A DNA stretch of 64,000 nt, from contig NZ_JAAAGB010000004.1 in NCBI RefSeq assembly GCF_010586825.1, positions 1 through 64,000 of the forward strand, written 5' to 3'. The first letter of the stretch is position 1. The number at the start of each line of letters is the position of its first letter. Below are positions 14,693 through 61,193 of this stretch, piece after piece. A model generated the notes under the pieces. The model was not told the DNA's origin. It did no database searches and saw only the letters and a list, made by a program, of their open reading frames with translations. A program made the position numbers and the translations under genes. The DNA comes from Draconibacterium mangrovi (lineage in GTDB: Bacteria > Bacteroidota > Bacteroidia > Bacteroidales > Prolixibacteraceae).

Positions 14693-14822
14693 TTGCAAAA
14701 TTTTCCGAAAAATACGATTCCTCGCGGAGATGAGAAAATACGACATGAATCAATTTGCAGAAAATACTACTTGTTTGTTAATGAATGTGGCAGGTGGTGT
14801 TATGTTGAGAGGATAAAAACAA

Positions 14823-15028
14823 GGTTTCCGCTGGTGCGGAAAGGTTGCCGTTACTTTATTTCATGGTTTCCGCAATCACGGAAAGTTAGCCTGACATTTA
14901 AAAGAAGGTTTCCGCGGCTGCGGAAAGTTAGTTTGAAGTTTAAAACAACGTTTCCGGGTGTGCGGAAAGGCTGTCTGTAATTTTTTTCAGGCTTTCCGTA
15001 AACGCGGAAAACCTGTTTGTTAATCGAA
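14823..15028. repeat. Five phased palindromes, 42-bp period
   Basis: Units start at 14823, 14865, 14907, 14949 and 14991, exactly 42 bp apart. Each contains TTTCCG-N6-CGGAAA. All ten arms are identical in the five units, while the six central bases differ (CTGGTG, CAATCA, CGGCTG, GGTGTG, TAAACG), and the 24-bp spacers have diverged to partly similar AT-rich sequence. Four helical turns separate successive dyads. This is not a CRISPR: the spacers are related and the repeats are too short. Possible roles are a protein-binding array or an RNA hairpin series. It lies between the DUF4159 gene and the ABC exporter. Confidence 0.9.
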
Positions 15029-58694: not shown

Positions 58695-59411
58695 TTACTC
58701 CACCACCGGTTCCGTTTTGTTTAATCGTTTGCGAACCGCCACGTTGTTGTCGGAGATAATTTCGGCAACGGTGCGGGCAAAGGCGCCAAAGGTTTCCACG
58801 TCAACCACTTCCATGGCGCGCAGGTACACCACAATTTTTTCGTTCACCAGCTTTAGTACCTCCACTTTTATTTCCGACGCGCTAAGTTCGGTGCTATCTT
58901 CTGCTTTTTCTTCTTCGTAAGCAATACGTGCTGTTTCGAATGCGGTTTGTGCCAACTGCAGCGCCGCAATTATCTCGGCACACCCCGACAGCAGCGCAAT
59001 AGCTTCCTGCAGGTCTGCCGCAGCCAGGTCATTTAGCATCGAGGTAACCAACGACGACTCAACAGCATAACTCTCTTTTGTTATTCCCATGCCATAACGT
59101 TCTATCACGGCGTTAACTTTTTCGGCTGCCGCACGGATGGCTGCATCGGGGTGATGCAAAAATCCCGCAACCAGGTAGAATAACGAGCGCAAAGGCTCGT
59201 CGCGTTCTTCATCTTTTTCTTCAAGGTTACTTTCGGCCGTAAGGCGGTTTATCGACGCCGAAAGACTGACCGACAGCGGCTCGAGGGCCGAAAACATAGC
59301 TACCAAATGTACATCGGTGCGAAGTGTTGTGTTCTTGTATGCTCCAATAATACGCATACATGCGGCGTCAACCTCTGTGACGCGACTTGTAGTTAAAATT
59401 CTCTCAATCAT
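58695..59411 (-). CDS. DUF6261 protein
   Basis: A 238-aa helical protein with no signal or membrane segment. It has DEERDEPLRSLFYLVAGFLHHPDAAIRAAAEKVNAVIERYGMGITKESYAVESSL and long Ala/Glu-rich helices, which I recall as the pattern of DUF6261, a Bacteroidota-restricted family of unknown function. A palindrome array starts 127 bases upstream of its start. It has a good terminator and is monocistronic. Confidence 0.7.
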   Translation of the reverse strand: MIERILTTSRVTEVDAACMRIIGAYKNTTLRTDVHLVAMFSALEPLSVSLSASINRLTAESNLEEKDEERDEPLRSLFYLVAGFLHHPDAAIRAAAEKVNAVIERYGMGITKESYAVESSLVTSMLNDLAAADLQEAIALLSGCAEIIAALQLAQTAFETARIAYEEEKAEDSTELSASEIKVEVLKLVNEKIVVYLRAMEVVDVETFGAFARTVAEIISDNNVAVRKRLNKTEPVVE

Positions 59412-59537
59412 GGTTTTTAATTTTGTTTGTTAAGTTAACCATTGCATTCTGTGTGGGTATGTTAGAAGTGCCTTGGTAATTAATTGATAAAAAAGATAGT
59501 ACAATAAAATTATATAAACAAATGATTAAAAACGTAT

Positions 59538-59783
59538 ATCGTACTGAGTACGATTGAAGAAAACTGCGTTAGTGGAGCATCGTACTGAGTACGATTGAAG
59601 AAAACTGTGTTGGTGGAGCATCGTACTGAGTACGATTGGAGAAAACTGCGGTAGTGGAGCATCGTACTGAGTACGATTGGAGAAAACCGCGGTAGTGGAG
59701 CATCGTACTGAGTACGATTGAAGAAAACTGCGTTGGTGAAGCATCGTACTGAGTACGATTAAAGAAAAGCGCATTAGGAAACC
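59538..59783. repeat. Six phased palindromes, 41-bp period
   Basis: The 17-bp palindrome ATCGTACTGAGTACGAT starts at 59538, 59579, 59620, 59661, 59702 and 59743, exactly 41 bp apart. It is identical in all six copies, while the 24-bp spacers (TGAAGAAAACTGCGTTAGTGGAGC and variants) differ by one to six bases. Spacers are related to each other, so this is not a CRISPR. 41 is not a multiple of three, so it is not a coding repeat. It lies upstream of the DUF6261 gene. Confidence 0.92.
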
Positions 59784-59950
59784 TTCAGTAGTACTCCCAA
59801 AGCTAATGTTTTACAAAAAATCTGTTATTTTTAAAGAATTAAAACCAAAATTACCGAATACATTGAACCCGACTCTTGCAAGAACAAAAACAAAAACCGG
59901 CCCGCTTTTCAATTTTAATACAAACATTATTAAAGTTTTACAGCAGTGCA

Positions 59951-60454: not shown

Positions 60455-60580
60455 CAATTTGTAATATGGCAGGCGGGGGTTTTAGCGGTCTGACAAGTCA
60501 GACCTGTCGCCCACTTTCCTGCGGGTCTGACACTCCCGATTGCATCGGAACCGGCAGGCAACTTGCAAGAGAACGTTAGC
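60451..60580. repeat. attC-like repeat A (130 bp)
   Basis: Begins ATAACAATTTGTAA and ends CTTGCAAGAGAACGTTAGC. TAAC at 60452 pairs with GTTA near the end, and TTGTAA with TTGCAA, with unequal spacers (about 3 and 6 bases), the layout of R and L boxes in attC. The centre is a GC-rich imperfect hairpin containing TCTGACAAGTCAGA. It shares CACTCCCGATTGCATCGG and GAGAACGTTA with repeat B. Confidence 0.55.
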
Positions 60581-61104: not shown

Positions 61105-61193
61105 TTACAAATTGTAATTGGCAGGCTGGGGCTTAGCAGTCCGACACTCCCGATTGCATCGGGACCGCCCGACCACATACAAGAGAACGTTAC
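61105..61193. repeat. attC-like repeat B
   Basis: Contains ACAAATTGTAATTGGCAGGC on the left and CATACAAGAGAACGTTAC on the right; TTGTA pairs with TACAA. It shares the CTCCCGATTGCATCGG core with repeat A but is about 40 bases shorter. It closes the cassette-like run. Confidence 0.5.

What the first reader, a model, noticed from the sequence alone, without database searches (positions are those of the whole stretch)
59538..59783. Array of six perfect 17-bp palindromes with exact 41-bp period
ATCGTACTGAGTACGAT is identical in all six copies, whereas the 24-bp spacers carry up to six changes. The period is not a multiple of three, so selection for a protein repeat is unlikely. Such arrays are known as parS/iteron-like or operator clusters, but this motif is not one I know. 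It sits upstream of a DUF6261 gene and beside a cassette-like region.
Basis: seen in the sequence. Interest (0 to 1): 0.7.

Follow-up and report, generated by a model that had tools for sequence, protein, structure and literature searches.

The report
Phased palindrome arrays paired with DUF6261
Six identical short DNA palindromes, spaced about four turns of the double helix apart, sit in front of a gene of unknown function; most of the related genes examined carry such an array in front, with palindromes that differ between lineages, and copies of these arrays are found elsewhere in some of the same genomes.

Summary
In detail: six exact 17-mers lie at 59538-59759 with period 41, upstream of a DUF6261 gene, in a genome close to Draconibacterium. 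It is one case of a wider pattern. Of 68 DUF6261 genes examined, 55 have a 40-42-bp-period array (or its double) within 1.2 kb upstream; 1 of 68 has one downstream, and 6 of 640 random own-genome windows have one. Array sequence differs between DUF6261 lineages; period and, often, dyads recur. Orphan arrays elsewhere fall into DUF6261-linked sequence classes in 6 of 9 cases tested. The class-A core motif occurs in 4 of 12 genomes, always inside arrays. One orphan site is filled in 4 genomes and empty in 10 relatives. Arrays are rarer in samples of genomes without DUF6261 (11 in 1.20 Mb against 1 in 1.11 Mb). They are not repeats of the resident RAYT genes, not coding, and show no G-U excess. 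Best reading: a dedicated double-stranded DNA site family with its home copy at the DUF6261 gene, probably bound by DUF6261 or a complex containing it. Binding is not shown, and 43 of 50 DUF6261 proteins are acidic.

The parts
59538..59783 (-). Class-A array: six units of 41 bp, each a 17-bp dyad (ATCGTACTGAGTACGAT on the + strand) plus a 24-bp spacer; lies upstream of the DUF6261 gene, which is on the - strand
59783..59802 (-). Degenerate dyad of class C (TTTGGGAGTACTCCCAAAG type) in flanking sequence shared with the D. orientale ortholog; read as a remnant of an older array at this locus (inference)
58695..59411 (-). DUF6261 gene (238 aa); model all-helical, protein acidic (pI 4.73)
59412..59537 (-). 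Gap between array and DUF6261 start codon; no match to the strict promoter pattern used
14820..15020 (.). Second array in the window, 42-bp period, TTTCCG-N6-CGGAAA type dyads (class B); an orphan whose class matches the array upstream of the DUF6261 gene on contig C24 of the same genome (L038)

Best explanation
The array is a multi-dyad double-stranded DNA site suited to cooperative binding on one face of the helix: 41-42 bp is about four turns, and in some arrays a weaker dyad lies half a period away. It belongs to a family of arrays whose home copy sits upstream of a DUF6261 gene. DUF6261 lineages have their own array sequence classes, and further copies of a class are found at other intergenic sites. 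Most likely the DUF6261 protein, alone or in a complex, is the cognate factor that binds its class of arrays at its own gene and at the distal copies. Shown: anatomy, linkage across many genera, class sharing between linked and orphan arrays, filled and empty orphan sites. Inferred: replacement of one class by another at the window locus, binding by DUF6261, cooperativity, and any effect on transcription or chromosome organisation.
For: Of 68 DUF6261 genes, 55 have a periodic upstream array, 0 of 68 an upstream repeat of another lag at that score, 1 of 68 such an array downstream; random own-genome windows have one in 6 of 640 (Fisher 3e-62, which treats related genes as independent). Dyads exceed column shuffles: 20 of 41 arrays p<0.05, combined 9e-18. 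Stem mismatches show no G-U preference (28 G-T, 39 A-C, p 0.22). Orphans match DUF6261-linked classes in 6 of 9 cases. The class-A core motif lies only within arrays, and so does the TTGCCCA..TGGGCAA motif of a genome of another family, with one linked and one orphan array. Array count is 11 in 1.20 Mb of genomes with DUF6261 against 1 in 1.11 Mb without (p 0.005).
Against: 43 of 50 DUF6261 proteins have pI under 7 (median 5.06; window protein 4.73, net charge -15), and the model has no recognised DNA-binding fold. The D. orientale ortholog, 88% identical, has a different palindrome class. G002 and G006 hold class-A orphans but no class-A array at any of their 9 and 10 DUF6261 genes. 3 of 9 orphans match no linked class. 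13 of 68 DUF6261 genes had no array call, and 21 of 41 arrays do not reach p<0.05 for a dyad singly. In 5 of 41 loci a promoter match lies upstream of the array and none between array and gene, so the array is not at a fixed operator position. In G447 the linked class had no orphan. The density control sampled only four genomes without DUF6261, two of them outside the genus.
Confidence: 0.45

Rival explanations
1. A selfish dispersed repeat: the array copies to new intergenic sites and expands in tandem, and DUF6261 is the factor that maintains or spreads it, in the logic of a REP and its RAYT but with unrelated parts.
For: One orphan site is filled in G000, G002, G005, G006 (gap 400-574 bp between the flanking genes) and empty in 10 relatives with the same two genes 82-171 bp apart; class sharing between unlinked sites; about 44 units in one D. 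orientale array; change of class at the window locus; fewer arrays in samples of genomes lacking DUF6261.
Against: The window DUF6261 has no other Pfam match and no clear fold match; no shared sequence was seen by eye beyond the units at three class-A arrays; the window DUF6261 gene and its D. orientale ortholog share a neighbour gene, so the gene looks positionally stable there.
Confidence: 0.25
2. The arrays are sites for some other, general architectural or regulatory protein, and DUF6261 genes are merely frequent targets of it.
For: Arrays also lie beside unrelated genes and between two genes of an unclassified 162-163-aa family; most DUF6261 proteins are acidic.
Against: One general protein would not need a different palindrome for each DUF6261 lineage, and orphans would not be expected to fall into DUF6261-linked classes (6 of 9) or to be rarer without DUF6261.
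Confidence: 0.17
3. The array is transcribed and works as a chain of RNA hairpins (leader, sponge or processed small RNAs).
For: In 5 of 41 loci a promoter match lies upstream of the array and none between array and gene.
Against: No excess of G-U over A-C in stems; no Rfam match at its gathering score for the window array; recurring 40-42 spacing across unlike sequences is not expected of RNA; in 8 of 41 loci a promoter match lies between array and gene (0.7 expected from shuffles).
Confidence: 0.08
4. Passive tandem duplication without function.
For: Units within an array are alike and copy number differs between species.
Against: Period and linkage are far beyond background, and no other lag occurs upstream of the 68 DUF6261 genes at that score; in the window the dyads are kept while spacers vary.
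Confidence: 0.05

Closest known systems
REP sequences with their RAYT / TnpA-REP genes (REPtrons)
   Same: Extragenic palindromes, a partner gene with repeats beside it, usually one partner gene per repeat type, copies elsewhere in the genome (PMC3733652 and PMC6006769, passages seen)
   Different: DUF6261 is not a Y1/HUH transposase by Pfam; the arrays are head-to-tail at 40-42 bp; 0 of 4 Y1_Tnp loci in this genome has such an array, and one has its own, different palindromes
Iterons and parS-type centromere clusters
   Same: Clustered protein-binding sites beside the gene of the binding protein (recalled)
   Different: Several classes in one genome and orphan arrays at other sites; no Rep, ParA or ParB family among the eight window proteins scanned
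Multi-operator autoregulatory arrays (for example omega-type repressors; recalled)
   Same: Array upstream of the gene of its presumed regulator
   Different: Position relative to the promoter match is not fixed; the partner is mostly acidic, without a recognised DNA-binding fold
CRISPR arrays
   Same: Regular repeats with semi-variable spacers
   Different: Spacers are alike between units; no Cas family among the eight window proteins scanned

Membership tests
GTAG/CGTC-tagged REP elements | GT[AG]G tetranucleotide at or near the foot of the palindrome | tested here: not met
   GT[AG]G lies within 5 bases of a dyad foot in 3 of 41 array consensus units, 3.5 expected from shuffles. The window array is one of the 3: GTGG stands three bases from the dyad in spacers 1-4, so for the window alone the feature is borderline
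GTAG/CGTC-tagged REP elements | CGTC tag at one end | tested here: inconclusive
   None beside the window dyads; not counted in the other classes
RAYT-associated REPs | Association with a Y1 tyrosine transposase gene | tested here: not met
   4 Y1_Tnp genes in the genome; 0 of 4 loci has an array of period 36-46 by TRF, and none of nine array units tested aligns to them above shuffles. The 'atypical structures' of Bacteroidetes subclass 2.6 in PMC6006769 could not be compared
Partition (parS) or iteron clusters | Adjacent ParA/ParB or Rep initiator gene | tested here: inconclusive
   None among eight window proteins scanned with Pfam; neighbours of other arrays were mostly only read by eye
Partition (parS) or iteron clusters | Specific binding by the partner protein | not testable with these tools
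   needs a binding assay
DUF6261 (PF19775) | Match above the curated Pfam cut-off | tested here: met
   82.2 bits against cut-off 27
CRISPR array | Unrelated spacers between identical repeats | tested here: not met
   12 of 24 spacer columns are invariant over six units
Known structured RNA family | Rfam match at the gathering score | tested here: not met
   window 59400-59900 gives one match, E 0.96, 16 bits against a gathering score of 41

The most novel reading that the evidence does not exclude
DUF6261 and its arrays form an undescribed class of chromosomal system: a protein family without recognised enzyme motifs, with lineage-specific, helically phased palindromic arrays, a home copy at the gene and others dispersed, in which array sequence turns over while period and dyad architecture persist across Bacteroidota in the broad sense, Ignavibacteria included.
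Probability: 0.5. Interest if true: 0.85.

Novelty: categorically new. Interest (0 to 1): 0.74.

Why it matters
It gives an uncharacterised protein family a concrete functional lead: a recurrent DNA partner of defined architecture. If DUF6261 binds these arrays, it would be a new kind of DNA-binding or chromosome-organising protein with fast-changing, lineage-specific target sequences, testable with one protein and one short DNA fragment. If instead it helps to spread them, it would be a route to families of dispersed palindromes that does not use a RAYT.

Tried and rejected

Mended on re-check: I first counted 16 empty relatives at the acyl-CoA synthetase site. One search shows that 10 of these have both flanking genes 82-171 bp apart without an array, G022 has them 466 bp apart without a periodic array, and 5 (G014, G021, G015, G016, G010) cannot be judged, because the neighbour gene was not found or too little sequence is held. 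I also first wrote that no GT[AG]G lies at the foot of the window dyads; one search shows GTGG three bases away in four spacers.

Literature: DUF6261 is in 1 paper of the held library, on Streptococcus (search listing and start of abstract). Five further searches for such repeats in Bacteroidetes or Draconibacterium listed nothing on such arrays by title and abstract beyond two REP/RAYT papers. PMC3733652: passages seen. PMC6006769: passages and section 25 seen. The promoter consensus, omega repressors, iterons and parS are recalled.

Rows dropped before counts: one search used 50 of 53 DUF6261 proteins (L030, L042, L130 are shorter than 215 aa); one search used the same 50. L124 was kept although no ATG was found in its reading frame up to the domain. 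Start codons are the most upstream ATG, so distances are approximate. Two pairs among the 68 are near identical (L130 with L154 over 312 bases, L150 with L151). Alignment A2 holds the window protein and 18 of the 22 loci (L156, L163, L166, L167 left out as broken or partial matches). and the motif test used the 41 arrays of score 20 or more out of 53 genes. In one search the linked L104, the low-complexity L114:5154 and the probably coding L206 were not tested as orphans; the second G006 sample of ten stretches had no repeat of lag 40-42.

Full report
The observation. The window holds six exact copies of ATCGTACTGAGTACGAT from 59538 to 59759 with a constant 41-bp step. Palindrome columns do not vary, while 12 of 24 spacer columns vary over six units (one-sided p 0.0003; 6 of 24 over the first five, p 0.03). 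The neighbouring gene 58695-59411 (-) is DUF6261. The array lies upstream of it, with 126 bases between.

Where it is. The window is contig C22 of a 5.9-Mb genome. The tool places G002, G005 and G006 in its genus; contig lengths identify G006 as D. orientale FH5T and G002 as D. sediminis JN14CK-3, and G005 matches an uncultured Draconibacterium MAG. The same tool genus also contains a Maribellus (G010), so the genus is taken broadly.

Not one array but a family. DUF6261 is multicopy: six genes in this genome; 19 of 41 genomes searched have it, own included. In a draw from the phylum it is patchy: 12 of 395 genomes at E<=0.001, 11 over the cut-off, own included. I measured self-similarity at every lag from 20 to 99 in up to 1.2 kb on either side of 68 DUF6261 genes. 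Upstream, 55 of 68 have a repeat of lag 40-42 or its double (82-85) at score 18 or more, and 0 of 68 have another lag at that score. Downstream, 1 of 68 has such an array (L044) and one has a 20-bp repeat (L048). Of 640 windows of 1.2 kb from the own-genome sample, 6 have the array lags and 14 another lag (Fisher 3e-62, which ignores relatedness of the genes). Of the 13 without a call, five have their best score, 13.6 to 15.4, at the same lags. Loci of Ignavibacteria, Carboxylicivirga, Maribellus and Sunxiuqinia are among those with arrays.

Architecture. Array sequences differ greatly between DUF6261 lineages, yet the period stays 40, 41 or 42, close to four helical turns. Consensus units have dyads beyond column shuffles in 20 of 41 arrays at p<0.05 (combined 9e-18); the other 21 do not reach it singly. 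Mismatches in stems show no G-U preference (28 G-T against 39 A-C, p 0.22). This fits double-stranded DNA dyads better than RNA hairpins.

Orphan arrays. A grid sample of 800 kb of the genome outside the window holds 8 repeats of lag 40-42; one is a linked array (L104) and one looks low-complexity (L114:5154). The six others, two from D. orientale and the second array of this window make nine orphans tested against 53 linked arrays. Six match far above 40 shuffles each (L089, L108, L114, L119, window 14820-15020, L204) and three do not (L083, L115, L198). For three of the six (L108, L119, window 14820) a matching linked array is in the same genome. Five more orphans, found by similarity and so biased, also match (L062, L063, L064, L065, L069).

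The class-A core motif CGTACTNAGTACG was sought in 12 genomes. It occurs in 4 (G000 14 sites, G002 9, G005 9, G006 9), every site inside a periodic array, and in 0 of 8 others. In G000 and G005 one array lies at a DUF6261 gene; in G002 and G006 none does, by the DUF6261 positions. A motif of another family's genome (G062) occurs, among 5 genomes searched, only there, in its linked array and one orphan array. In G447 the linked class had no orphan.

Gain and turnover. Between an acyl-CoA synthetase gene and its neighbour, G000, G002, G005 and G006 have the array (scores 93-168) and 400-574 bp between the genes. Ten relatives have the same two genes 82-171 bp apart without it; G022 has them 466 bp apart without a periodic array; five of the 20 loci cannot be judged. 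At the window locus the D. orientale ortholog (88% identical protein) has class-C palindromes, and the outer edge of the window array keeps one decayed class-C dyad in the same flanking sequence. The simplest reading is replacement of the class in place. D. orientale also has a class-C array of about 44 units.

Dependence on DUF6261. Samples of two genomes with DUF6261 gave 11 repeats of lag 40-42 in 1.20 Mb; samples of four without it gave 1 in 1.11 Mb (p 0.005). Leaving out three that look low-complexity or coding, judged by eye, it is 9 against 0 (p 0.003); leaving out the linked one too, 8 against 0 (p 0.005). The sample is small.

The protein. AlphaFold2 gives a confident all-helical model (pLDDT 93, pTM 0.77) with no clear relative. 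R70, D67, A96 and D71 are the most conserved residues over 50 members. 43 of 50 have pI under 7 (median 5.06; window 4.73). This speaks against the simplest form of direct DNA binding and is the main weakness of the preferred reading.

Promoters. A strict Bacteroidota-type promoter pattern, recalled, lies between array and gene in 8 of 41 loci (0.7 expected) and only upstream of the array in 5; 28 have no match, the window among them.

REP test. GT[AG]G lies near a dyad foot in 3 of 41 arrays, 3.5 expected; the window is one of the three. The resident RAYT loci have no such arrays.

Reading. The most economical account is a dedicated DNA site family with its home copy at the DUF6261 gene, bound on one helix face by DUF6261 or a complex with it. 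The close rival is a selfish array that DUF6261 helps to spread. Both make DUF6261 the partner; they differ in what the orphans do. No binding, transcription or movement experiment was possible here.

Noticed in passing
window 60525-60578 and 61139-61192: Two 54-bp repeats (85% alike) ending in CAAGAGAACGTTA, each after a small ORF without a Pfam, NCBIfam or PADLOC match; cassette-like spacing
   Followed up: partly
L115:13937-14199: Array with a CTTCDGAAG-like dyad at roughly 21-bp steps, between two genes of a 162-163-aa family without a Pfam match (one of the two also scanned against NCBIfam); perhaps a second protein family with arrays
   Followed up: partly
G006:C1:2444110-2445935: About 44 units of 42 bp of class C in D. 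orientale
   Followed up: no
L077:1299-1318 and 1927-1946: A Y1_Tnp gene with CCGTCAGCTRAAGCTGACGG palindromes on both sides, perhaps a REPtron of its own
   Followed up: no
L044: The only one of 68 DUF6261 genes with the array downstream
   Followed up: no
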